Source: Entophlyctis helioformis
Lineage: Eukaryota > Chytridiomycota > Chytridiomycetes > Chytridiales > Chytriomycetaceae
Assembly (NCBI GenBank): GCA_025526915.1
Contig: JAHLKH010000436.1
Location: forward strand, 1-12,684
Reading direction: 5' to 3'
DNA length: 12,684 nt
The translations under genes and the position numbers were made by a program. The notes beneath the pieces are model-generated. The model was not told where the DNA came from, searched no databases, and saw nothing but the letters and a program-made list of their open reading frames with translations. Shown piece by piece: positions 1 to 11,820 of this stretch; the first letter of the stretch is position 1; each line of letters starts with the position of its first letter.

Positions 1-934
1 CCACGAGTTGGACGCGTTGGGCGAGTTGGATGAGCGCGTCTGTGCGCGTCCACGGCGGCGGCTGCCACCCGCAGCAGCAGCAGCATGCGAGTCGACAGCA
101 GAGCCGTCGGCCAAGAGGCCCGACTCTGCCTCGTCGACAAGCTGGAGGGCCGAGGCCTGGTAGACGCGGGTCAGGGTCACGAGCAGGGCGACGAGCGACA
201 GTCGCACGACAAAGACGCAGAGGACGACGACGTCGAGCGGGGCGGCCAAGGGCGAGTCCGGCCGCGGGGCCACGATGAACATGCACCAGTTGTAGGCGCG
301 GACGGCCTCTGCGGCGAGGGCCAGCGACCAAAAGTGCTGCAGCACGGCCGGGATGCCGTGCACGAGCATGGAGCGGCGCCGACGTCGATGGTGACGCTGG
401 TGCAGATGCGGATGTTGCCGACGACAGCGGACAGCGAGGCGTAGGCGGGCGAGGGGATGCTGGGCGAGCCGCTGGGCGAGCGGCGGGCATAGTCGCGGGC
501 GTCCCAGGTGGCGACAAAGAAGACGACGGCGCAGGCGACGAGGCCAGGCAAAGGGCCAGCAGCACGTCGGCCAGCGTGCGGGCGGCCTTGGCGCGGGCGA
601 TGACGGTGACGGTGTCGGGATGGACGGCGAGGAAGAGGTCGGCCAGCAGGTCGGCGACGCAGGTGGCGAGCACGGCGGCCGAGAGCAGACGCGAGACGGC
701 CGAGAAGGTCTGCAGGTGCGACGCCGTGTAGGCGGGCACGGCGCGGCTCTGTGCGTGCGTGCGTGCGTGTGTGCGTGCGTCGTGTGCGTGCGTGTGTTCA
801 TATGCGTGCAAGCGACGGTCAGCAGGCGTCACGTGGAGGTGGTGGTGGTGGGCAGCCAGTAGGCAGCCAGTAGGCAGGCAAGGGGCAAGGCGAGAGGCAA
901 GGCGCCACCTGGTGCGGCAGCAGCGCAGCGGCCT

Positions 935-975
<41 letters not shown>

Positions 976-1238
976 TCGTCGTCGTCTGCATTGTCGCCGT
1001 GGCTGCCGTGGCCAGATACGGCGTGAGACACCGGGCGAGCGTCGGCGTGAGACACGGCGTGAGACACCGGGCGAGACAGGCGCAGGAAGCGCCGCAGCCA
1101 GCGCACGGAGCCGACGAGCACGGCGAGCAGCAGGACGGCGGCCAGCGCGGTGTCGAGGGCGCACGGCGCGATGCGGAAGTGGCTCCACAGCGGCGCCGGG
1201 CAGAAGGGCGCAGCCGCGGGAGGGGCGGGCGAGGGCAT
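1..1238 (-). CDS. 5' part of a polytopic membrane protein, TMD0-like (possible ABCC/MRP-type transporter), runs off the window
   Basis: Read on the minus strand. The first ATG (1238) begins MPSPAPPAAAPF, followed by a Trp/Cys-containing segment and a hydrophobic helix (LDTALAAVLLLAVLVGSV). Exon 1 is 909-1238 (110 codons, phase 0) and ends in an Asp/Ala repeat. A likely intron lies at 749-908 (CAG|GTGGCG ... CGCACAG|AGC). Exon 2 encodes about four more hydrophobic segments: LLSAAVLATCVADLL, GLVACAVVFFVATW, GIPAVLQHFWSLALAA and DVVVLCVFVVRLSLVALLV. Five helices followed by a polar linker is the layout of the TMD0-L0 region of long ABCC transporters. The core transmembrane and nucleotide-binding domains would lie beyond position 1, so the family call is an inference. 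Exon 2 stays open only if two apparent -1 frameshifts are allowed, near 548-556 and 369-380. It could be another multi-pass protein or a pseudogene. Confidence 0.4.
751..799. repeat. (GTGC)n simple repeat inside the transporter-like gene's intron
   Basis: Imperfect GTGC/GTGT tetranucleotide run. On the coding (minus) strand it reads (GCAC)n and ends directly at the proposed 3' splice site CACAG at 749-750, so it takes the place of a polypyrimidine tract. Confidence 0.8.
934..986. repeat. (GGCGTC)n/(GTC)n coding repeat
   Basis: Hexanucleotide GGCGTC repeats merging into GTC triplets. In the minus-strand frame of the membrane-protein gene this encodes a run of Asp followed by alternating Ala-Asp, an acidic low-complexity loop after the first membrane helix. 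It stays in frame. Confidence 0.75.
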
Positions 1239-1547
1239 GCGGCGGCTGGTTGGCGGTTGAAGTTGGCTTGTTGGTGGATGTGCGGGAAAGCCGCGGGCAC
1301 ACGCGCAGGGGCAGCAAGGGTCGCTGCCACCGGCAGCCAGCCAGCCGCGTCTGTAAAAGCAGCACTTGTTTGTGGTGGTGCACTCGACACTCGATACACG
1401 AACAACTTCTGCTACAACAACTGGAAGAACAGTCACAGGGACAACAACAACAACAACTAGAAGAACAGCATCAGGTCGTTTGGACGCGTGCACAAAATCA
1501 CAGCTTCATTCACATGCGCGGCCGGTGACGGGGCGTCAGCAGGCGGC
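1239..1547. other. Intergenic region between the transporter-like 5' end and the LRR-A 3' end
   Basis: About 310 bp holding the 5' flank of the minus-strand membrane-protein gene and the 3' flank of LRR-A. No TATA box is clear. It contains CAA-rich low-complexity sequence around 1441-1470 and an imperfect direct repeat (GTTCTTCTAGTTGTTGT and GTTCTTCCAGTTGTTGT on the minus strand). No AATAAA is seen downstream of LRR-A. The minus-strand reading frame is open through much of it, but the Val/Pro-rich product looks non-coding. Confidence 0.5.
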
Positions 1548-2379
1548 TTAGAGAGCGAGGGCAGCGACACCGGCAGCGAGCAGGGCGGCAACCGACGTGC
1601 CAAAGGCAGACGCGCCAGACACAATCGGGGCATCGCCGTACGTGGCCTTGTCGTCCTTGGCAGCAGGGGTCTCCTCGGCAGCGGGGGTCTCCTTGTAGTA
1701 GCCGGGAGCAGCGGGCTTGGGCGACTTCTTGTCGTCCTTCTTGGTGGGGTAGGCGGGGTAAGCAGGCTTGTAGGCGGGCTTCTTGTCGTCGGCGTCGTAG
1801 CCGTACGAGGGCAGCTCGGGCTCAACGGGGGTCGGGGCAGGGGTGCCGTAGGGCTTGTCAGCGGGAACGGTGGTGGCGACGTAGGGCTTGTCGGCAGCAG
1901 CGGTGGTGGCGACCACGACGGGGACGGTGGTGGCGGGAGCAACAGGGACGGTGGTCGTGGGGAGGGCGGGGAGGGCCGAGCAGAGCACGGTGACACCGCA
2001 GGCGGGCTTCTGGCCGTCGGCGAGGCAGAGGCGGGGAGCAGCCGACGTGCAGACCTCGATGGTGGCGGGCAGGGCAGGGAGCGCGCCGTCGAACGCGGTG
2101 CCGTCAAGCACGAGGTACTTAAGCGAGGCGGCGGTGAAGGCGGGCACGGGGCCGGTCAGCTTGGTGTTGGACAGGTTGATGCCGACAATCGACTTGAGGC
2201 CAGCGAGGCCGGCGGGGAGGGCGCCGGTGAAGTCGTTGCCGTTGAGCGTGCTGGCGTTGATACGATGGCGGTGGTGGTCGCGGTGATGGTGCACAGGCGT
2301 GTCAGCGGCGATATTCTGGCAATTCTGCCGCGTGCAAGGCTGCGTGGGTGGGCTCGCACCAACGGCGAGGAGATGGACG

Positions 2380-2412
<33 letters not shown>

Positions 2413-2876
2413 TAACGCTCGCTACTCACAGCTGCTCGAGGGCGGCGAGGCTGGCAAGGCTGGCGGGGATGGCGCCAGAGAGCTTGTTGTTGCCGAGGGC
2501 AAGGTCCTGGAGACCGGCGAGCGAGCCAATGTCGGCGGGGAGCGAGCCAGTGAGCTCGTTCTTCTGGAGGTACAGCTGCTGGAGGGCAGTCAGCTTGGTG
2601 ATGGTGGCCGGGAAGGCGGTCTTGAGGGCCTTGCCGGAGAGGTCACTGGAGGTCGGCGGTCACAGCCAAGCAGGCAGGCATAGGCAGGCAGGCAGGCAGG
2701 CGTGTGAGCAACAGGCGTCCGCCAGATGAGCCGAAGCGAGAGGCGGGCGGCACTCACAGCTGGGTGATGCGGTTGTCCGTGCAGATGATGCTCTCGTGGG
2801 TGCAGCAGTCGGCACCGAACGTGACGGACGGGAAGGCAGCAGCGACAACAGGGCAGTCAACAGAGACGGCAGACAT
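1548..2876 (-). CDS. LRR-A: leucine-rich-repeat protein with Pro/Thr/Lys-rich stalk and hydrophobic C-terminal tail
   Basis: Exons on the minus strand are 2758-2876, 2430-2645 and 1548-2250. Both introns (2646-2757 and 2251-2429) start GTGAGT, end CAG and are phase 2. The sum is 1038 nt, 345 residues plus TAA. The ATG at 2876 follows a TATA box by about 60 nt. Residues 1-40 form an N-terminal cap with Cys near 8, 24, 25 and 32 (GADCC). Exon 2 encodes exactly 72 residues, three plant-type 24-residue LRRs such as LQQLYLQKNELTGSLPADIG. Exon 3 adds two more repeats, a four-Cys cap (EVCTS...CGVTVLC), a short Thr/Val/Pro stretch, a Tyr/Lys/Pro stalk (DDKKSPKPAAPGYYKETP) and a hydrophobic end (SVAALLAAGVAALAL). 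The tail suggests GPI or tail anchoring and a binding role at a membrane, but the ligand is unknown. There is no N-terminal signal peptide. It is a paralogue of the gene at 5396-6989. Confidence 0.88.
2381..2411. repeat. (AGGC)n tetranucleotide repeat in LRR-A intron 2
   Basis: Seven perfect AGGC units plus a partial one. It lies just inside the intron, about 20 nt from the 5' splice site on the minus strand. Confidence 0.9.
2671..2701. repeat. (CAGG)n tetranucleotide repeats in LRR-A intron 1
   Basis: Two adjacent runs of the same CAGG/AGGC unit (2671-2679 and 2682-2701), 26 nt from the proposed 3' splice site on the minus strand. It is the same repeat unit as in intron 2. Confidence 0.85.
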
Positions 2877-2936
2877 CTTTCTAGAGTGTTTAGAGGAGTG
2901 TTGGGATGGCGGCAACTGCGGGGCGGGCAGCCGCTG

Positions 2937-2946
2937 GTTTATAAAC
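2937..2946 (-). promoter_or_regulatory. TATA box of LRR-A
   Basis: The palindromic sequence GTTTATAAAC lies about 60-70 nt upstream of the LRR-A ATG. Spacing fits a TATA element with a short 5' UTR. The paralogue has a TATA-like element at a similar distance. Confidence 0.6.
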
Positions 2947-3672
2947 AGGGGCGGCCGGCTTGTGTGCCGTGTGGAGCAGAGCCGTGTGACGAGGCTCGCA
3001 CCACGCGGGTTGGACTCGTGTGCGAGGAGCGTGGAGGGTGGCCCCCGTCCAATTTTGCCTTTTATGGAAAGATTTGTGCGCTCGCTCGCGTGGCTGCCGC
3101 GTGGACAGACACGCGCTTGACACAAATTCGCTTGCTCTCCTTCAAGTCTTTGCTGCGCTGCGGCGTTTTATGTGTGTCAGTGCGCTGCTGTGTGATGTGC
3201 GTTGATGTGTGCTTGTGTCAGCGCCGCAAGGAGGAAAGAAGCTGTGGTTGTGTGTTGGTGAGTGTGTTGTTGGCAGGACGTCGCTCGCCTGCCAGTCATC
3301 CGCAGCAGCTGGAACCAGCGTGTGTGGGGATGACGGCGCCAGTGGCCACAGAAGATGCGATGCGCAGTGGCCGTGGGCGGTTTGCAGCGATCCTCGGTCT
3401 GCTTCTGCCGTCCATGCCGCCAAGAACGCTCGCTCGCTGGCCGCTGCAGGTCGTGGCTGGTGGCTGCACTGTTGTGTGTCTGCACAGCTGCACGGCTGCA
3501 CGAGTCGCAGTGTTCCTGTCGGTGTGCTCTCTGCTTTGGCCGTCGGCCAGCGCCACCGTCGCCACATCTATTGGCGCATGATCGAACCCTTTGGACGCGT
3601 CGTGTCGGTTTCCCTTTCGTCCCCAAACACAACAAAGACACACACAAGCACAAGCACACAAGACACGAGCAT
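2947..3672. other. Divergent intergenic region between LRR-A and the TRF4-like gene
   Basis: About 725 bp with no convincing gene. Several open frames occur on both strands but have low-complexity or Cys/Arg-rich products. The part from about 3288 to 3565 resembles the 5' flank of LRR-B (see the repeat entry). It carries CCACGCGG at 3001 and CCGCGTGG at 3097. The last 60 nt before the ATG at 3673 are A/C-rich (ACACAAGCACAAGC), as expected for a 5' UTR. Confidence 0.6.
3288..3565. repeat. Duplicated 5' flank, copy 1 (upstream of LRR-A)
   Basis: It shares an ordered series of blocks with 7343-7612: GTCGCTCGCC, CTGCCAGTCA, GCGCCAGTGG, TTGCAGCGATCC, AACGCTCGCT, TGTGTCTGC-type blocks and CGTCGGCCAG. 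Order and spacing match, so this is homology and not chance. Both copies sit upstream of paralogous LRR genes in the same orientation. Length differences between blocks show indels. Confidence 0.75.
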
Positions 3673-5217
3673 ATGAGCGCCGAGATGTTTCCTTGCAAGT
3701 TTGAGCCCCTCGACACGGTCGACTACCTGGCCGATGCGTCCGCACCGCCCGCCAAGCGGCTCGCAACGCCTCGCAACGCCCTGGCGCTGCAGACAGCGGT
3801 TGCCCCAGCAACGAACCCAACCACCGCTTCGTCCACGTCCACGGCCATGCCGTCAGCCGACAGCAAACCGCCGCCCCGCCCGACTGACGATGCCATGTTC
3901 CTGACGCAGCTGACGCACGACCTGATGGCGCTGTCGAGCGACCTGGCCCCGAGCGTGCCCGAGACGGCGCTCGTCCGCTGGCTGACGGGTGTCGTGTCAG
4001 CCGTGTGCCGCTCGTCGCTGGCGACCACGGGCCTGCACGTGGCCATGGTCGGCTCCGTGCGGTGCGGCACTGCGTTGACGGGCGACGGCGACGATGTGAA
4101 TCTGAGCGTGGAGCTGCCGGCGCGGTCGCTGCCGACGCGTGCCAAGGTGGACGCGTGGGGCAACCGGTCGGACGTGGAGGTGCTCGTGCGCGTGAGCCGG
4201 CGGCTGCGCGAGCAGGTGTGGGTAGATGGCCGGTCGGTTGTCTTGACGATGCCGTCGTCGTTGTCGGTGGCGTCGGTGGCGTCGGCTGCTGTTACAGACG
4301 CGACAGACGCTTCGGCGGCGGAAGCTGGCCCGCGACTGACGTGGGAGACGAGCGCGCTGCTTGGTTGCAGAGTGTCCATGAGTCTGACGGCGTTTGATCA
4401 GACGAGTGTGGATCGCTCTGCGCTGTGTGTCGAGTGGACGCGCGTGTATGAGCAGTCTGCGCCGCTGGTGCTACTCATCAAGGCGCTGCTGAGACAGCAC
4501 GGTCTGCATCGTCGTGCGCTTGCTGGTGCTCGTGCGGGCTCGGGTTCAAGTGGCGGCGACGGGCTGAGTGGGTACGCGTTGCTCAACATGGTCGTGGCTG
4601 TGATCCTGAGAGTCAGAGAGGGGTCACGCTCGGCGCTGCGCACGATGCTCGGCCCGCTGTTTCTGGATTTCCTCAAGTTCTACGGCTGGGAACACGACTA
4701 TGGCCGCCATGCGATTGCGCTGCGTCGGACGGCGTCGCCATGGCAGCCCCTCACTGCGTTTATCATTGACCGACCCGATGCTCCAGCACACGGCACGCAG
4801 GGCACACACGGGGGCGTGGGCACTCGCGAGTATCCGATCAACCTGGCGAGGGCAGACCAAGCGAGCAGGGGCAGCAGCAGCAGCAGCAGCAGCAACGGCC
4901 TCACGCTCTTTATCAGCGACCCGCTGCAGTTTGGCACGAACATTGCAGCGAGCACCACACGCGTGCATGACATGCGCCGCGTGTTCCGCGACGTGTACAG
5001 CCGGATTGTGCAGTCGTCGCGGCTGTTTAGCGTGTCGCCGTGGACCGACTCTGTGCTCGCTGGCGCCATCCGCCGCGGCACGGGGCATGCCGACCAACGC
5101 CGCGCCATTGCCGCAACGTGGGAGCGTGTCCAGCACACACGGACGATTCTTGAGAAGCGATGCGGCCCTGGCTATGTGACTGTCAACGACATGCTGCGCG
5201 TCATGTCGCGTTGGTAG
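3673..5217 (+). CDS. TRF4/Cid1-like noncanonical poly(A)/nucleotidyltransferase homologue with degenerate catalytic site
   Basis: Single exon of 514 residues. The ATG at 3673 (MSAEMFPCKF) is preceded by an A/C-rich leader. After a disordered Pro/Ser/Thr N-terminus comes the nucleotidyltransferase signature VGSVRCGTALTG (G127-S128). Then follow the PAP-associated domain (GDGLSGYALLNMV, about 295-307; FLDFLKFYGWEHDYGRHAI, about 330-348) and the terminal IxDP motif with downstream helix (LFISDPLQFGTNIAAS, from about 412). That order is typical of TRF4/5 (PAPD5/7) enzymes, which add A tails to nuclear RNAs for exosome decay. In the active site, the strand expected to carry DxD reads DDVNLSV (D141, N143), although D138/D140 is another register. 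The strand expected to carry the third Asp reads CRVSMSL (232-238) with none. It may therefore be inactive or a scaffold. Seven AGC codons (about 401-407) form a Ser run before the last motif. Confidence 0.8.
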   Translation: MSAEMFPCKFEPLDTVDYLADASAPPAKRLATPRNALALQTAVAPATNPTTASSTSTAMPSADSKPPPRPTDDAMFLTQLTHDLMALSSDLAPSVPETALVRWLTGVVSAVCRSSLATTGLHVAMVGSVRCGTALTGDGDDVNLSVELPARSLPTRAKVDAWGNRSDVEVLVRVSRRLREQVWVDGRSVVLTMPSSLSVASVASAAVTDATDASAAEAGPRLTWETSALLGCRVSMSLTAFDQTSVDRSALCVEWTRVYEQSAPLVLLIKALLRQHGLHRRALAGARAGSGSSGGDGLSGYALLNMVVAVILRVREGSRSALRTMLGPLFLDFLKFYGWEHDYGRHAIALRRTASPWQPLTAFIIDRPDAPAHGTQGTHGGVGTREYPINLARADQASRGSSSSSSSNGLTLFISDPLQFGTNIAASTTRVHDMRRVFRDVYSRIVQSSRLFSVSPWTDSVLAGAIRRGTGHADQRRAIAATWERVQHTRTILEKRCGPGYVTVNDMLRVMSRW

Positions 5218-5395
5218 TGCCTCATGCGAGACGACTATCGAACAGCAGTGAACAAACAAGAGCCAGCACGGTGGAAACGACCATTGTGAAGAGACACATC
5301 CAACCACGCGTTCAGCGATCCACAACCAACCAACAGCTATAAAAGCAGGAGTGAGCGAACAAAACAATGTTTTATTGGACAAGGTCTAGACACGC
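5218..5395. other. Convergent 3' intergenic region (TRF4-like / LRR-B)
   Basis: 178 bp between two stop codons facing each other. It is locally A-rich on the plus strand, including CTATAAAAGC at 5337-5346, which is more likely 3'-end sequence of the TRF4-like transcript than a promoter. The LRR-B polyadenylation signal lies in its right part. Confidence 0.6.
5371..5376 (-). terminator. AATAAA polyadenylation signal for LRR-B
   Basis: The minus strand reads AATAAA 20 nt after the LRR-B TAA, with a GT-rich stretch (TTGTTTTG) following, as in canonical eukaryotic 3'-end signals. Confidence 0.65.
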
Positions 5396-6989
5396 TTAGA
5401 AGGCAAGGGCGGCGATACCAGCAGCGAGCATGGCAACAACCGACGAGCCGAAAGCAGAGGCGGACGAGAGGATGGGCGAGTCACCCTCCTTGTACGAGCC
5501 CTCGGGAGCAGGGGTCTCCTCGGGAGCGGGGGTCTCCTTGTAGTAGCCAGGGGCAGCGGGCTTGGGCGACTTCTTGTCGTCCTTCTTGGTGGGGTAGGTG
5601 GGCTTGTAGCCGGGGTAAGCGGGCTTGTTGCCGGGCTTCTTGTCGTCGGCGTCGTAGCCGTACGAGGGAAGCTCGGGCTCAACAGGGGTCGGGGCAGGGG
5701 TGCCGTAGGGCTTGTCAGCGGGGACGGTGGTGGCGACAGCAGGGACAGTGGTGGCGGGAGCAGCAGGGACGGTAGTGGTCACGCCGGGAACGACAACAGG
5801 GGCGGTGGTGGCCTTGGCAGCGGTGGTGGTGGTGCCAGGAGCAACAGCAGGGACGGTGGTGGTGGTGCCAGGGACGACAACGGGCACAGTGGTGGTGGTG
5901 CCAGGGACGACAACGGGGACGGTGGTGGTCTTGGCAGCGGTGGTGGTCGTGGGGGGAACGACAACGGGGACAGTGGTGGTGGTGGCCACGACCGTGGTGG
6001 TCTTGGCAGCAGTGGTGGTGGTCGAGGCGACGTCGCCAGATGCGCAGACCTTGGTCACACCGCAGACGGTGGTGCCAGCAGCCACACAGGCGTTGGCGGC
6101 GTTGGCAGCCGTGCAGACCTCGACGGTGGTGGGCAGGGCCGGGAGGGAGGTGAAGCCGGTGCCGTCAATGAGGAGGTACTTGAGCGAGGCGGCGGTGAAG
6201 GCGGGCAGGGGGCCAGACAGCTTGGTGTTGGACAGGTTGATGCCCGTGACGGCCTTGAGGTTGGCGAACTCGGCGGGGAGCGGGCCCGAGAAGTCGTTGC
6301 CGTTGAGCGTGCTGGCGGGTGCAAGAAGGTGCAGTCATGTTGGTGCACAGGCGGGCGGCGGCAGGCGGCAGGCCGAGATGGTGCACAGGCAGGCGGGCAC
6401 GCGTGTCAGCTCGAGGGCGGAAAAGGCGTTTTGCCGCAGCACCTTGCCAAGCCGATCGCGCACACGGCGGCCACGGCGGCGAAAATGGGCAAGGCGAGCA
6501 GGAGTGCAGGCAAGGCAGGCAAGAGCGAGAGCAAGAGGGAGACGTACAGCTGCTCAAGGAGGGCGAGCTTGCCAAAGTCGGCGGGGATGGCGCCAGAGAG
6601 CTTGTTGCCAGAGAGCGAAAAGTCCTGGAGCTTGACGAGCGAGCCAATGTCGGTGGGCAGCGAGCCGGTGAACTGGTTGCCGGCAAGGTAGAGCTGCTGG
6701 AGGCCGGTGAGCTGGCTAATGGTGGCGGGGAAGACACCCGACTTGTTCTGGCCGGTGAGGTCGCTGTGGAGGGGAAGCAGGCGAAGGTGCAGGAGCAGGC
6801 GGGCGGTGTGTCAGCAAGCGGGCGGGCGGGCGGGCGGGCGGCAAGGTGCACCGACGCAGATACGGGCGAGACTCACAGCTGGGTGACACGGCCGGCGTCA
6901 CAGAGGACAAACTCGGAGGTGCAGCAGTCGGCGCCGAACGAGACGGACGGGAAGCCAGCAGTGAGGATAGCGCAGTCAGCAGAGGCCAT
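5396..6989 (-). CDS. LRR-B: leucine-rich-repeat protein with expanded Thr/Val/Pro mucin-like stalk and hydrophobic C-terminal tail
   Basis: Exons on the minus strand are 6877-6989, 6548-6763 and 5396-6311. Introns 6764-6876 (GTGAGT...ACAG) and 6312-6547 (GTACGT...CCAG) are phase 2, at the same places as in LRR-A, and exon 2 is again 216 nt. The total is 1245 nt, 414 residues. The ATG at 6989 has an in-frame TAA directly before it, so the N-terminus cannot be extended without an upstream exon. Order of parts: Cys cap (FGADCCTSEFVLC), about five 24-residue LRRs (LQQLYLAGNQFTGSLPTDIG), four-Cys cap (EVCTA...CGVTKVC), about 90 residues of repeats of the type TTTTVPVVVPG, the Tyr/Lys/Pro stalk shared with LRR-A, and tail SSVVAMLAAGIAALAF. 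The Thr-rich region is a likely O-glycosylation target. Function beyond a probable membrane-linked binding protein is unknown. Confidence 0.88.
6820..6839. repeat. (GGGC)5 tetranucleotide repeat in LRR-B intron 1
   Basis: Five perfect GGGC units within the 113-nt intron. Intron 1 of LRR-A carries (CAGG)n at the equivalent place, so both first introns hold a tetranucleotide repeat of different sequence. Confidence 0.85.
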
Positions 6990-7040
6990 TTAGGAAGTGT
7001 ATGAGAGGGGATGCCGGCAAGGGCAGCGGCGACAGGCCCA

Positions 7041-7050
7041 GCTATTTAAC
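7041..7050 (-). promoter_or_regulatory. TATA-like element of LRR-B
   Basis: The minus strand reads GTTAAATAGC about 52-61 nt upstream of the LRR-B ATG, matching the position of the LRR-A TATA box. The sequence is weaker than a consensus TATAAA. Confidence 0.45.
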
Positions 7051-7342
7051 GGAGCCGCCTCCTCGCCCTCATCTGCTGCCATCGCACGCACAACCCATGA
7101 CTTGAAACGACCGCGTGGTTGGCCGCGCGTGCACCGAGGAGGCCACGCGGTGGCCGCGTGAAAAACGGGAGAAATATTGCCAAAAATGCGCAAATGGGTG
7201 GCTCGCCACGTGGAGCAGCAGCATGGCCGGGCTGGGCCATGCTGTGTGTGCGCGACAATTTGCAGTGTGATTCACCCGCACGCAGGAGCAAGGAGTGCTG
7301 TGTGTGTGTGTGCGCGCTGCTGATTGTGGCCGATAGCGCTGT

Positions 7343-7612
7343 CCAGGTGTCGCTCGCCCGCCCGCCCGCCTGCCAGTCAGCCGGCAGCGCAGTCCAGGTG
7401 TTGGTTAGCAGCAGCAAGCGTGCGTGGGCATGCCGGCGCCAGTGGTCGTGTTGGCGTTCTTGCAGCGATCCACGGCATGTTGCTGTCGCCCATGCTGCCA
7501 CGAACGCTCGCTTGCAGGCAGGTGAGACTGCACTGCTGCGTGTCTGCCGATCCAAGCTGCACGCTCGCTGGCGGCTGCAGTGTGCTCGCTGCTCCGACGT
7601 CGGCCAGATCGA
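7343..7612. repeat. Duplicated 5' flank, copy 2 (upstream of LRR-B)
   Basis: Counterpart of 3288-3565, with the same ordered blocks (GTCGCTCGCC, CTGCCAGTCA, GCGCCAGTGG, TTGCAGCGATCC, AACGCTCGCT, CGTCGGCCAG). It includes an inserted CCCG-type tetranucleotide run near 7356-7370. With LRR-B this makes a duplicated unit of about 2 kb. No convincing gene lies in 7051-7663. The octamers CCGCGTGG (7111) and CCACGCGG (7143) also occur upstream of LRR-A. Confidence 0.75.
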
Positions 7613-7663
7613 GTGGCAGGATCGAGTAGCCCCGTCAAGGATCCTGCCCGCCTTGTGCTGCCC

Positions 7664-7795
7664 TCACGATGCCTGCACGATGCCCTCACGATGCCCACAC
7701 GCTGCCTGCACGATGTCCACACGCTGCCTGCACGATGTCCACACGATGCCCACACGATGCCCATAAGATGTCCATAACATGTCCACATGGTGCAC
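7664..7795. repeat. 11-bp minisatellite, 12 tandem units
   Basis: Twelve consecutive 11-nt units of consensus NCACGATGCCC (variants ACACGCTGCCT, GCACGATGTCC, ATAAGATGTCC). The last units are more diverged. Because 11 is not a multiple of 3, the open frames over it are by-products of the repeat. It lies between the LRR-B flank and the Fanzor relic. Confidence 0.85.
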
Positions 7796-8161
7796 ACGCA
7801 GGCCCCTTCATGGCGCGTCCGAAGCGCCAACGTCTCCGCCCGCACACGCAACAGATCGCGGCCCGGTTCTCATACCATTACCCTTGGTGGAATCGCTGTG
7901 ATTGGTCGATCTAGAGAGCCCTTGCGAAGTGCTGACATTGCGTGATGCGAGCACAGCAACAACGCGCCATGCCAGATCCAGACGCTGCTGCACTTGCCGC
8001 CCAACTGCACACAAGCAACAACGAGACCAACGACGAGCCGTTGTGTGGGCATTTGGCATCGACTTTACAGGCCAAGGTGGCCGGCACGCTGTGTTTGAGA
8101 AGTTTCTCATCAGGCATCTGCGGTTGTCTGGATATGCCTATGTGCGTCTGATGCCACACTG

Positions 8162-8185
8162 TCCATCCATCCATCCATCCATCCA
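8162..8185. repeat. (TCCA)6 microsatellite in the Fanzor intron
   Basis: Six perfect TCCA units, 20 nt after the proposed 5' splice site of the Fanzor relic. Confidence 0.9.
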
Positions 8186-8213
8186 TCTGTGCACCAACTG
8201 ACCACACGATCAT

Positions 8214-8214
<1 letters not shown>

Positions 8215-8286
<72 letters not shown>
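8215..8286. repeat. (CA)36 microsatellite ending at a splice acceptor
   Basis: Thirty-six perfect CA dinucleotides. The final CA followed by G makes the CAG of the 3' splice site of the Fanzor relic's intron. It explains the long His/Thr or Cys/Val frames here on both strands. Confidence 0.97.
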
Positions 8287-8288
<2 letters not shown>

Positions 8289-8545
8289 TCTACCGCTGCA
8301 ACGAGAACCTGACCAGCCAGATGTGCCCGCAGTGCAAGCAGCGGATCCCATACGAGAACCGCACCAACCTGCGACGCTACAAGTGCACAGACTGCAAGAC
8401 CGTCTACCACCGAGACGTGCTTGGAGCCACCAACATCGGGATGGTCGCACAGGGACATCTGTTCCATGGACAACGACCGCTCTACTTGACGAACACACGC
8501 CACCTGACAGCAATCCAGCCACGCAAGAGTACCTTGCAGACATAG

Positions 8546-8923
8546 AGGCAACTCATCATGACATCCAGTGGCGTGCACAACATCACATCATGCTGCTCGC
8601 GACACCGCCTGATCAGCCTGTCGTCCAGCAGCCTCCGTCACCCGATCTGCTTCCCTTCAAGTCGCATGTGGCCTCATGGGATCAGATCATGCTGCCATGT
8701 CTGCCAACAACAACACTTTGAATCGGGGCACCTCCCGATCGACCTAACGGGTCACTTCAATAGAAGGTGAGACCCTTGTTGGATGTGCCTCGCCCGCTTG
8801 TCGTCGCATGCTCGTTGCTGACTCGAACCTTCCATCGTGTGATACGCGGGCTTGCATTCGACGCCTCTTGGGTAACTCCAAAATCCTTGGTAATTGTATC
8901 AATATCGGGCCAAGATCGCCGAG
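8546..8923. other. Intergenic region between the Fanzor relic and GCP4
   Basis: No gene is convincing. A plus-strand frame running from the CA repeat to 8721 has a varied composition downstream of the Fanzor stop but no recognisable motif. The hairpin cluster is at 8722-8769. The last 100 nt are less GC-rich (TAATTGTATCAATATCGG) and should hold the GCP4 promoter and leader. Confidence 0.5.
8722..8769 (+). ncRNA. Three consecutive small hairpins downstream of the Fanzor relic (candidate guide-RNA scaffold remnant)
   Basis: Hairpin 1: ATCGGG (8722-8727) pairs with CCCGAT (8734-8739) across a 6-nt loop. Hairpin 2: GACC (8741-8744) pairs with GGTC (8750-8753) across TAACG. Hairpin 3: CACTTC (8753-8758) pairs with GAAGGTG (8763-8769) with one bulged G and an AATA loop; it shares base 8753 with hairpin 2. 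They lie about 180-220 nt after the Fanzor stop, where TnpB/Fanzor guide RNAs are encoded. Pairing is seen; function is inference. Confidence 0.25.
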
Positions 8924-11820
8924 ATGCTGCACGAGCTGCTGACGGCGCTGGCCGGCCACACTGGCGACGTTTTTGCCGTGCCGCCTACGACACATACGAC
9001 GGCCTCGACACCTACGAAGCCCACGATGGCCCGCCTCCCGTTTGTCCACCCGGCCGAGCGGGCCGTGCTGGAGCGGCTCGCCAGCCTCGGCGCCGCCCAC
9101 AACGACCTGGCGGCGTTTGTCGCCCGCCACTCGTCCGCCCGCCGGCCGCCTCCGCCGTCAACGAGTACAGCGACGACGACTACGACGACGACGACGACGA
9201 CGACGACAACGACAACGACGACAACGGCCACAGCTACAGCGACGGCAGGCGGCCTGTACCTGTCGGCCCTCGCCGCCGGCGTGGCGGCCACGCTGCACTC
9301 GTACCGCCGCCTGCTGTCCGCCCTTGAACGGCGGCTGCTGTCCACAGACGCTTCCGACGCATACGCCGACGACGGCCACAGCACGGGCAAGGGCAGCGAC
9401 ACCCGCGGCGGCAAGACGCCGCTGTCGCTCATCGCCTCGCAGGTGCACTCGTACTACACGCTGTTTGCGCACATCGCCCGCCTGCTGGCCGTCGTCGACC
9501 CGCTTCAACCACAACCACAACCACAACCACAACCACAACGTCCACACGGGCTGCAGATCCTGGACGCGATCCACGCGGCCGCGGGCTGCGGCATCCCCGT
9601 CGTGGCGGCCGAGATGCTGGCCTACCAGACAGCAGCCATGCGCGTGCTGCTGCGGCAGCTGGTGGGCTGGATGCTCTACGGCCAGCTGGCTGATCCGTAC
9701 ACCGAGTTTTTCATTGTCGAGCACCCCGCGCAGTGTCGTCGGCGAGAGGCGGCGCGGGCTAAGCGGGCCAAGCGCGATGGACGGGATGCGGGTGATGGAG
9801 TCGGTGTGACTGGAGCGACAACGACAACGATGACGACGACGACGTGGGCGGAAATGTACATGATTGTCGAGGACCGCGTGCCGCGTGTGCTCGGTCGCGC
9901 GGTGGCCGAAATGGTGCTGTTCAACGGCAAAGCCATGGCGATTGTCTCTGCGCGCAAGCCCGAGCTCGGTGAGTCGGCTGCACGTGCGGGCACAAAGAGA
10001 GTGCTGTCATGATGCTCGTGATGCTTATCATACCGAGTGGACAGTCGAGCCAATCGTCGGGCCGTTTGTCGATCGGCTAGCCAGGCTGGGCACGAGGATG
10101 CAGGACGCGCTGGCGGACCCGTCGGCGGCGCGGCGGATCAACGAGTCGGTCGTGGCAGATCTGGCTGCGTGCTGCGCAGACATGAACCGCGAACTTGCTC
10201 GCGTGCTGTGGGATATCGTCGTGATTGACGAGCATCTGCCTGTGCACCTCATGGTTCGTTTTACTTGTTGTCCCTTGTCCAGTCATGCTCGTCTCCACGC
10301 AAGATGCTGACCACAAGCAACAACGACAGGCGTTCCGCAATGTGATGCTGGCTGGCAAAGGCGACTTTATTCTCGAGCTGATCGAGAGCCTCGACACCGT
10401 CAAGCACCGCTCAGCGACGACGCTGACACCCCGTCTCGTCGTCGGACCTCTCCCTCGCCTTCCACAAGACGTGGGGCAAAGTCGTGTGGCCCGAGTCCCA
10501 GACGCGCTACGCCAAGCCGCGCTTTTCGCTGCGCGCCGTATCGGCCCAGTCGGTCGGCACGGCCACGACATCAGCAGGCAGCACCAGTGGGAGTGGTCGA
10601 CGGCGTGCAGCAGGCGTCCGCCGCAACGTGTACGCAGCAGCCGTAGCAGGCGGCGGAGTGAATGCCGCGCTCGACTACGACCTGGCGTGGCCGCTCGACC
10701 TGTTCCTCACGCCGGGCGACATGGACGCGTACAACCGCCTCTTTTGCTTCCTCGTGGCCCTGCGGCGCGTCCAGCGGCGGCTGCAGCGCCTGTCGCTCGT
10801 CTTTGGCTGCGGCGGCCTCGTGCGTGGCATGGCCGCGTCACGCTCTCGCCACGGCTCGGTCGGCGCTCCTGCTGCTGGCAGTGCTGGCAGTGGTGGCAGT
10901 GCTGGCACGACTGGCACGACTGGCACGACTGGCCGCAGTGCTCGGCAGCAACAGACCGACACGGCCACCAGGCTGCCCACATCCGTCTGGACGCTTCGCT
11001 GCCGCATGCTCTTTTTCATCGACTGTCTGTGGTCGTATGTCCAGGTATGCCCTAGTTCCACACTATACCGCATGCTCGGCACTGACTCTGCCCGCTCACC
11101 GCACGACTGCCCCCGCCCAGATGGATCTCATCGACGTCGAGTTCAAACCGGTTCCTTCAGGGCGTGCGCGGCCGGTCGCAGCATCGCGGTCGCCGGCGCT
11201 GTCGGGCGACACGTGGCCCCCGCTGCCCAGGTCTGGCTCTGGCTCTGGGCTGGCGTCCGACGATCCCGCAACTCCGACCGCCCCGACTGCCCCGTCGCTC
11301 GACGATATCCAGCAAGCCCATCGCGGTGCCTCGACCGTATACTGAGCGGCTGTTTCCTGGAACCACATGGCGATGCGTCTGGCAGTGGTCCCAGCAGTGG
11401 TCCCAGCAGTGTGGGTAACAGCGTGTACGAGGCGATTGATCTGTGCGGACGCGTGTGTGCGGCCGTTGAGCGGTATGCTGGCGATGCGGGCATGGCCATG
11501 TCCGTGTCCATGGCCACGGGTCGCGCCGACCGCCATGCGCGCGATGTCGAGAGTCTGTGCCGCGACGTGGGAGAGTCTGGGCAAGCCAGTTTGAGACGCG
11601 TGCCGCGTTCCTCTTCCAGGTGTTTTCAGGCGTGCAGGGGCCTGCCGGTGGCACTAGTAGTGGCAGTGGTAGTGCGACGGGTGCGGCTGGTGCGACTGCG
11701 GGCAGTGCACACGCCGCGTCAGAGTCCAGGTCGCGAATGGACTCGCCCGCGCAGTTCTCGTCTGCGCTGCTCGGCCAGCTGCTCATCCGGCTAGACTTTA
11801 ATGCTGCAGACCGACAGTAA
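8924..11820 (+). CDS. TUBGCP4: Gamma-tubulin complex component 4 (GCP4) homologue, with apparent frameshifts
   Basis: Exons: 8924-9968, 10045-10253, 10330-11044, 11121-11820. The ATG at 8924 gives MLHELLTALAGHTGDVF, matching the start of animal GCP4, so the in-frame codon at 8894 is not used. Conserved parts follow in order: PFVHPAERAVLERLASLG; GGLYLSALAAGV; LQILDAIHAAAGCGIP; the GRIP1 motif VGWMLYGQLADPYTEFFI; RVLGRAVAEMVLFNGKAM; ELARVLWDIVVIDEHLP; FRNVMLAGKGDFILELIESL; then the GRIP2 part, WPLDLFLTPGDMDAYNRLFC with FLVALRRVQRRLQ, MLFFIDCLWSYVQ and the end LLGQLLIRLDFN. GCP4 belongs to the gamma-tubulin ring complex that nucleates microtubules. The frame breaks near 10429-10432 (an extra C in CCCC), 11326-11330 (one base short) and 11565-11592 (one base short). 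Either the sequence has errors or the gene is decaying. Disordered inserts (Thr run, QP run, Gly/Ser/Thr) are not in animal GCP4. Confidence 0.88.
9159..9243. repeat. (ACG)n repeat encoding a poly-Thr insert in GCP4
   Basis: ACG/ACA triplets coding for about 20 Thr followed by Thr-Ala alternation, within a loop between conserved N-terminal helices. The frame is kept, as expected for slippage under coding constraint. Confidence 0.85.
9506..9538. repeat. (CAACCA)5 repeat encoding Gln-Pro in GCP4
   Basis: Five hexanucleotide units that keep the frame, giving alternating Gln-Pro before the conserved LQILDAIHAA segment. Confidence 0.85.

What the first reader, a model, noticed from the sequence alone, without database searches (positions are those of the whole stretch)
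8010..8545. Relic of a Fanzor RNA-guided nuclease next to GCP4
The sequence shows both zinc-ribbon CxxC pairs (CPQC, CTDC), the RuvC-II Glu in NENLTSQ and the RuvC-III Asp in HRDVLGATNIG, plus the preceding VVWAFG strand. All three sit in one plausible spliced frame. The C-terminal catalytic half is thus well preserved while the N-terminal domains and RuvC-I Asp are not detectable. That is unusual: either a recent 5' truncation, a host-captured zinc-ribbon/RuvC fragment, or a gene whose upstream exons lie in the poorly coding 7620-8009 stretch.
Basis: partly seen in the sequence, partly recalled or inferred. Interest (0 to 1): 0.78.

Follow-up and report, generated by a model that had tools for sequence, protein, structure and literature searches.

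The report
Shrunken Fanzor transposon beside GCP4
A chytrid fungus carries a shortened copy of a jumping gene that normally encodes an RNA-guided DNA cutter; this copy has lost the front of the cutter but keeps both transposon ends and the stretch that may make the guide RNA, right in front of a gene for building microtubules.

Summary
In detail: 8288-8545 matches the TnpB/Fanzor zinc ribbon (PF07282, E 4.8e-11) and keeps the relocated RuvC-II Glu and the RuvC-III Asp. But it is not a 5' relic. It is a complete, internally deleted transposon, 7860-8911 (1052 bp), with 23-bp terminal inverted repeats and an 8-bp target duplication (7 of 8 bases), ending 12 bp before the GCP4 start codon. It matches positions 1-168 and 8157-8965 of an 8,965-bp copy in the same genome, Entophlyctis helioformis; about 8 kb, with the RuvC-I Asp, is missing. 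The deletion junction is spanned at 11 of 40 scored places, so the short form seems to have moved. No ATG is in frame with the Fanzor piece and the copy has a frameshift: it makes no nuclease. The non-coding 3' end is more conserved than the coding tail before it, and a 28-nt hairpin motif in it occurs at 188 places, control 0. My reading, partly inferred: a 'ghost'-like non-autonomous element that may supply a guide RNA to full-length Fanzors. Full elements also carry an XPG-like gene, apparently a new variant.

The parts
7852..7859 (+). left copy of the 8-bp target site duplication (CAGATCGC)
   Evidence: 7 of 8 bases equal 8912-8919; 13 of 33 examined elements have an exact 8-bp duplication, 21 of 33 at most 2 mismatches
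7860..7882 (+). 5' terminal inverted repeat GGCCCGGTTCTCATACCATTACC
   Evidence: 68 places at up to 1 mismatch in the genome, control 0
7860..8037 (+). 5' end of the element; holds an ATG (7945) whose frame is not the Fanzor frame
   Evidence: 89-97% identical at 38 other places (40 scored of 148 candidates); 88.7% to positions 1-168 of the C24 element; frames
8037..8038 (+). internal deletion junction (about 8 kb lost relative to the C24 element)
   Evidence: junction spanned at 11 of 40 scored places
8038..8141 (+). Fanzor exon remnant (VVWAFGIDFTGQGG...)
8142..8287 (+). GT-AG intron, here enlarged by a (CA)n run (about 8215-8286); 146 bases against 68-117 in the 20 other copies
8288..8721 (+). 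last Fanzor exon: RuvC-II Glu, zinc ribbon, RuvC-III Asp; frameshifted near 8490, so the frame stops at 8545
   Evidence: PF07282 E 4.8e-11
8715..8911 (+). conserved non-coding 3' end, candidate guide (omega) RNA scaffold with three small hairpins at its start
   Evidence: no RNA data; fold z-score only -0.61
8889..8911 (+). 3' terminal inverted repeat (reverse complement of GGCCCGATATTGATACAATTACC)
   Evidence: 84 places at up to 1 mismatch, control 0
8912..8919 (+). right copy of the target site duplication (AAGATCGC)
8924..11794 (+). neighbouring host gene GCP4-like (GCP_N and GCP_C domains); ATG 12 bp after the element
   Evidence: sequence; PF17681 E 1.3e-35, PF04130 E 4.2e-13; end coordinate is that of the ORF, not of a checked gene model

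Best explanation
A non-autonomous, internally deleted DNA transposon of a large Fanzor-carrying family in Entophlyctis helioformis. Shown: both inverted repeats, an 8-bp target duplication, longer relatives, a deletion junction shared by several places, and loss of coding capacity. Inferred: enzymes of other copies moved it in trans; its conserved 3' end may still be transcribed as a guide RNA whose guide is the sequence to the right of the element, here the first codons of GCP4; loaded on a full-length Fanzor it would cut a GCP4 allele without the insertion and so favour keeping or re-copying the element, as proposed for Fanzor/TnpB elements. The confidence below is for the identity as a short Fanzor transposon; for the guide-RNA step I would put about 0.4.
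For: TIRs and duplication; alignment to both ends of the 8,965-bp C24 element, which has an exact duplication; TIR pattern 213 places against 0 in the reversed control; junction spanned at 11 of 40 scored places, one of them (C109) with its own exact duplication; no in-frame ATG in any of the four short copies read, window frameshift; 3' end conserved above the coding tail, 28-nt motif at 188 places, control 0; published ghost loci keep IRs and the guide-RNA region and lack the gene (PMC10432273 section 7).
Against: For the guide-RNA step: no RNA data; fold z-score -0.61; only 3 of 52 consensus pairs show a double change; no Rfam family above its gathering score; no clear TAM in 20 independent sites. 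For mobility: no transposase identified; 12 of 33 TIR pairs lack a recognisable aligned duplication, some probably mispaired. C35 is the same insertion as the window, so independent short insertions read in detail are three (window, C109, C9), and C9 lacks a clean 5' TIR.
Confidence: 0.9

Rival explanations
1. Same transposon anatomy, but the short copy is inert: a MITE-like deletion derivative whose 3' end is conserved because a transposase binds it or because copies are young; no guide RNA is made.
For: Weak folding, few double changes, no transcripts available; 5' end is also highly conserved between window and C35 (177 of 178), as expected for ends that a transposase needs.
Against: The conserved block extends about 190 bases inward, far beyond the 23-bp TIR, and the 28-nt motif is exact at 100 or more places while the coding tail beside it is 32-65% identical in nine subfamily copies.
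Confidence: 0.45
2. The short form encodes a selected mini-protein (zinc ribbon plus RuvC-III), a domesticated or element-encoded regulator.
For: C35 against C9, both short, gives pN/pS 0.04 over exon 1 and part of exon 2 (about 9 differences); C35, C9 and the window keep all four cysteines and the RD.
Against: No in-frame ATG in the window, C35, C109 or C9; C109 is frameshifted inside the ribbon and the window behind it; the window shows pN/pS 0.82 against 14 long copies. C9 carries the 3' tail of another subfamily, so exchange with long copies can explain the low ratio.
Confidence: 0.04
3. The Fanzor exons are part of GCP4 or of a longer host gene whose other exons lie in 7620-8009.
For: Only the neighbourhood and strand: the element ends 12 bp before the GCP4 ATG.
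Against: 7860-8037 is matched at 38 other places and is the 5' end of the C24 element; the GCP4 ORF opens with its own ATG at 8924 and has its own N-terminal domain.
Confidence: 0.01

Closest known systems
Ghost Spu-1 elements of Spizellomyces punctatus (Saito et al. 2023, PMC10432273; section 7 read, other passages seen)
   Same: Inverted repeats at both ends, no functional Fz gene, 3' end homologous to that of Fz-bearing copies; also in a chytrid, with many full and short loci (42 Fz loci, 134 ghosts there).
   Different: Here the short form still holds the last two Fanzor exons as debris, has an 8-bp duplication with different TIRs, and derives from a 9-kb element with many introns and a second gene; the published ghosts are about 550 bases and their RNA was shown to work, which is untested here.
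Fanzor1 elements of Bao and Jurka 2013 (PMC3627910; abstract and sections 4 part 1, 12 and 15 read)
   Same: TIR-bounded element carrying a protein with D-X(125,275)-[TS]-[TS]-X-X-C4-X(5,50)-RD (here X 187 and X 5 in a long copy); some of theirs have 9-bp duplications (MuDr-like) or no recognisable transposase; CMe-1A there has about 150 copies.
   Different: In the sections I read, no element pairs Fanzor with an XPG-like nuclease or has an 8-bp duplication with these TIRs.
Internally deleted non-autonomous DNA transposons (Ac/Ds type; recalled, no call)
   Same: Both ends kept, interior lost, presumably moved in trans.
   Different: The kept 3' end may also be a guide-RNA unit.

Membership tests
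Fanzor / TnpB nuclease family | OrfB zinc ribbon (PF07282) | tested here: met
   window 8288-8545, E 4.8e-11, 43.1 bits over cut-off 26.3
Fanzor / TnpB nuclease family | relocated RuvC-II Glu six residues before the ribbon, and RD after it | tested here: met
   E-x6-C and C4-x5-RD in the window; definition from PMC10711439 passages
Fanzor / TnpB nuclease family | RuvC-I Asp and N-terminal domains | tested here: not met
   absent from the window element, which jumps from element position 168 to 8157; in long copies I assign RuvC-I to GIDWGE by eye
Fanzor / TnpB nuclease family | DPG at RuvC-I, near exclusive in Fanzors according to PMC10711439 | tested here: not met
   long copies read D-W-G (C24, C63, C172, P0001, P0008, P0010), so the full-length family is atypical for Fanzor in this feature
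Fanzor / TnpB nuclease family | sequence match to a solved Fanzor | tested here: inconclusive
   no solved Fanzor matched; best were TnpB-like LaTranC, E 0.037 and 0.28
Ghost-type Fanzor element | inverted repeats at both ends homologous to those of Fanzor-bearing copies | tested here: met
Ghost-type Fanzor element | Fz ORF lacking | tested here: inconclusive
   no translatable ORF, but the last two exons remain as debris, unlike the published ghosts
Ghost-type Fanzor element | 3' end made into an RNA that is bound by Fanzor | not testable with these tools
   no RNA data; conservation only
Non-autonomous TIR DNA transposon | TIRs plus constant-length target duplication | tested here: met
   8 bp; window 7 of 8, C109 and C24 exact, 13 of 33 exact and 21 of 33 within 2 mismatches
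Non-autonomous TIR DNA transposon | identified transposase superfamily | tested here: inconclusive
   ten ORFs of the C24 element gave no Pfam family above cut-off (best transposition-like: Integrase_1, E 0.022); KDZ has 4 matches elsewhere in the genome; hAT none, but the control stayed silent

The most novel reading that the evidence does not exclude
The element is a natural guide-RNA cassette: a short form that spread by borrowing the enzymes of full-length copies, each insertion re-programming a Fanzor with the flank it landed beside, here the GCP4 start codon, so that alleles without the insertion are cut and the element homes into them. The two-nuclease make-up of the full element (XPG-like plus Fanzor, no transposase recognised so far) would be the homing machinery.
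Probability: 0.15. Interest if true: 0.85.

Novelty: new variant of a known kind. Interest (0 to 1): 0.5.

Why it matters
What Fanzors do for eukaryotic transposons is still open. A 29.6-Mb genome with at least 150 Fanzor-type zinc ribbons, long and short forms, exact 8-bp duplications and a shared deletion offers a natural experiment: short copies cannot make the enzyme, so selection kept on them must act on the ends or on RNA. The linked XPG-like gene is a concrete new lead on how such elements move.

Tried and rejected
Rejected: 5' truncation (both TIRs); host capture and upstream exons; mini-protein.

Led nowhere or weak: a TAM logo from left flanks (among 72 positions of 20 independent sites only G at -4, and A at positions 2 and 4 of the duplication, reach uncorrected p below 0.02); fold z-score of the 3' end; Rfam (two matches, both far below gathering score); PDB sequence searches of the C-terminal piece and a longer model; PDB search of the XPG-like protein alone (nothing) and as a profile (best were ribosomal proteins S5/S2, E 0.14, no nuclease); its structure (mean pLDDT 41, so no fold search was made); hAT search. 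Protein searches found relatives in Entophlyctis only: 3, 4 and 3 proteins (word-based, so distant Fanzors can be missed).

Counting limits: loci that carry the 3' motif without a zinc ribbon could not be counted; 34 of the 100 listed motif places had no listed PF07282 hit, but both lists are capped and some of these places do hold a frameshifted exon (e.g. C24, C109). The nearest-TIR pairing is imperfect: the C25 pair is probably false, since a separate junction-bearing copy lies at its 3' end. One search examined 32 of those 35 pairs plus C109; not fetched were C5:205250 and C297, and the C35 copy was left out as the same insertion. Dropped before counts: C14, C122, C109, C24 (indels); C109 and C58 (the script did not find their 3' TIR). 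The 34 rows are not independent (some share flanks).

Full report
Observation. The zinc ribbon and RuvC motifs are real. Exon 8288-8545 matches PF07282 at E 4.8e-11 (43.1 bits, cut-off 26.3); the exon before it has no Pfam match. E-x6-C4-RD occurs once in six frames of the window and in 2 of 300 first-order Markov random windows. The relocated Glu and the ribbon are features that PMC10711439 (passages seen) and PMC3627910 (sections read) give for Fanzors; the latter names two more residues, G500 and E536, as extremely conserved in Fanzor1, which I take to be the Gly of VVWAFG and the Glu of NENLTSQ (my mapping). The genome holds at least 150 places that match PF07282, all 150 scored being above its cut-off (205 candidates).

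Organism. It is a chytrid. The window is the whole contig C436.

Anatomy. A search with 7560-8760 gave 63 matches from 40 scored candidates (of 399); most begin at window 8038, which looked like a common truncation. The fetched copies showed otherwise: in 17 of 20 the similarity to each other runs on upstream for kilobases, as far as fetched, with insertions in some; the other three (C35, C109, C9) share with the window a different sequence before 8038. That sequence is the 5' end of the element. The copy C24:161158-170122 is 8,965 bp, with TIRs and an exact 8-bp duplication CAAAGCCG; the window element aligns to its positions 1-168 (88.7%) and 8157-8965 (87.5%). In the window the TIRs are 7860-7882 and 8889-8911 and the flanking octamers CAGATCGC and AAGATCGC. 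The joint TIR pattern occurs 213 times at up to 2 mismatches, control 0. Of 33 elements with both ends examined, 13 have exact 8-bp duplications and 21 at most 2 mismatches; 12 do not. Positions 2-4 of the duplication favour A: 30, 29 and 31 of 50 distinct 3' flanks.

Spread of the short form. A query across the junction matched across it at 11 of 40 scored places (304 candidates): C436, C35, C109 and C9 at 95-100%, seven more at 82-85%. C35 has the same insertion in the same flanks (GCP4 side 777 of 783, left flank 931 of 995 aligned bases identical), so it is an allele or duplicate. C109 has its own exact duplication CAAAGCAG. C9 lacks a clean 5' TIR. I could read the 5' side of four of the seven diverged places: C401 and C25 show, to my eye, a decayed TIR-like end, C113 and C1 do not. 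So the junction is probably old and the short form moved after it arose; independent insertions read in detail are three.

Coding state. No ATG lies in the Fanzor frame between the 5' end and VVWAFG in the window, C35, C109 or C9. The 5' ATG (7945) enters another frame at the junction in the window, C35 and C109; in C9 that frame stops before it. The window is frameshifted near 8490, C109 inside the ribbon. Of the 17 long copies fetched, C14, C122 and C24 also carry frameshifts in these exons. Over exon 1 and 65 codons of exon 2, 14 long copies give pN/pS 0.32 (91 pairs); the window gives 0.82 against them and 0.70 against C35, so it drifts; C35 gives 0.34 and C9 0.19 against the long copies, and C35 against C9 gives 0.04. 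The last value would fit selection on the short protein. I discount it because C9 has the tail of another subfamily, so exchange with long copies is likely, and because there is no start codon; it remains the best argument for the mini-protein rival.

3' end. In 34 copies, mean column conservation is 0.81-0.87 over 8504-8719 (coding tail) and 0.89-0.97 over 8720-8911 (non-coding); the core of exon 2 is mostly higher still (0.87-1.00 over 8288-8503). In nine subfamily copies whose tail is 32-65% identical to the window, the two blocks 8722-8800 and 8801-8888 are 74-95% identical. A 28-nt motif from this block occurs at 188 places at up to 3 mismatches, at least 100 exact, control 0; 66 of the 100 listed lie 181-544 bp beyond a listed PF07282 hit on the same strand. 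Three hairpins at its start persist, one with a paired change in C123, another with a changed and enlarged stem in several copies. Against a structured RNA: z -0.61 for the window copy, double changes in 3 of 52 consensus pairs. Window and C35 are identical over all 197 positions of 8715-8911 and 177 of 178 of the 5' end, while exon 2 differs at 13 of 203.

Setting. The element ends 12 bp before the ATG of the neighbouring gene (8924). Its product starts MLHELLTALAG, like GCP4 as I recall it, and has the GCP_N and GCP_C domains. A guide of about 15 nt past the duplication would cover the first codons.

Mechanism. Ghost loci in Spizellomyces have IRs, no Fz ORF and a 3' end like that of Fz loci, and the RNA runs 14-15 nt past that end (PMC10432273 section 7); ghost RNAs supported editing (passage). 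PMC10711439 places TIR and TSD in the guide-RNA scaffold of Fanzor1 (passages). By analogy the window element would make a GCP4-directed guide for Fanzors from other copies. This is inference: no RNA was seen, and no TAM could be read.

The full element. At its 5' side it encodes a protein with FEN1/XPG-like acidic motifs (P0004-P0007: VDF, VDG, YEAD, NDSD, TDY; my reading). Pfam XPG_I_2 matches at E 0.0047-0.014, below cut-off; a PDB profile search found no nuclease and the structure model was poor. It has 264 matches from 142 scored candidates. Of 88 loci merged from the listed matches, 47 have a listed PF07282 hit downstream on the same strand within 12 kb, against 0 upstream and 1 on the other strand; 18 of the 35 TIR pairs hold a listed match. 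In ten ORFs of C24 no Pfam family was above cut-off; Integrase_1 appeared at E 0.022. In the long copies the presumed RuvC-I reads DWG, not the DPG that PMC10711439 calls near exclusive for Fanzors, so the family is atypical.

Literature. The listing of papers with at least two of Entophlyctis helioformis, Fanzor and transposable element shows none of the 12 listed (of 37) naming the species. Fanzor with ghost and inverted repeat: PMC10432273 only. Further listings. Academ with XPG: none (one search gave one unrelated paper). PMC11423790 was seen in listings only.

Verdict. An ordinary process, internal deletion, in an unusual family. The identity as a short Fanzor transposon is firm; the guide-RNA role is a testable proposal.

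Noticed in passing
L061:1982-3718 (- strand, C24 element); P0004-P0007: The full Fanzor elements carry a second gene with FEN1/XPG-like acidic motifs; 264 matches in the genome, linked to zinc-ribbon hits downstream on the same strand at 47 of 88 listed loci.
   Followed up: partly
window 8730-8760 and 188 places in G000: The motif ACCTCCCGATCGACCTAACGGGTCACTT is exact at 100 or more of 188 places, stronger conservation than the coding tail next to it.
   Followed up: partly
L001, L004, L005, L006, L008 (C366, C235, C123, C40, C336), 3' flanks: Five copies on different contigs share the 3' flank atttgccggcggtttgcc: insertion into a repeat, or a subfamily with a longer 3' end.
   Followed up: no
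L040 and L058 5' ends; rows 26-52: The 5' end carries a variable number of subterminal tandem repeats of about 26-29 bases around CTTGGTGGAATCGCTGTGATTGGTC.
   Followed up: no
window 7667-7800: A minisatellite-like run of CACGATGCCcACAcG-type units lies in the host flank just left of the element.
   Followed up: no
G000:C334:6404-7253, C271:9823-10062, C396:222-449: KDZ (Zisupton-type) transposase matches, 4 in the genome; C396 also holds a Fanzor 3' end at 10280-10302. Whether KDZ moves the family is unknown.
   Followed up: no
L048, L049, L051 and C60; L055 and C297; L057 and C480: Groups of copies share the same 3' flank, so the assembly holds haplotype or segmental duplicates and copy numbers overstate independent insertions.
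   Followed up: partly
window 5396-6810 (- strand): A leucine-rich-repeat protein gene with a Thr/Val-rich tail (LRR_8 E 1.2e-12); ORFs at window 1548-2659 on the same strand look similar (by eye).
   Followed up: no
window 3334-5217 (+ strand): Long ORF with a weak Cid1-type poly(A) polymerase match (PF03828 E 1.8e-4, just under its cut-off).
   Followed up: no
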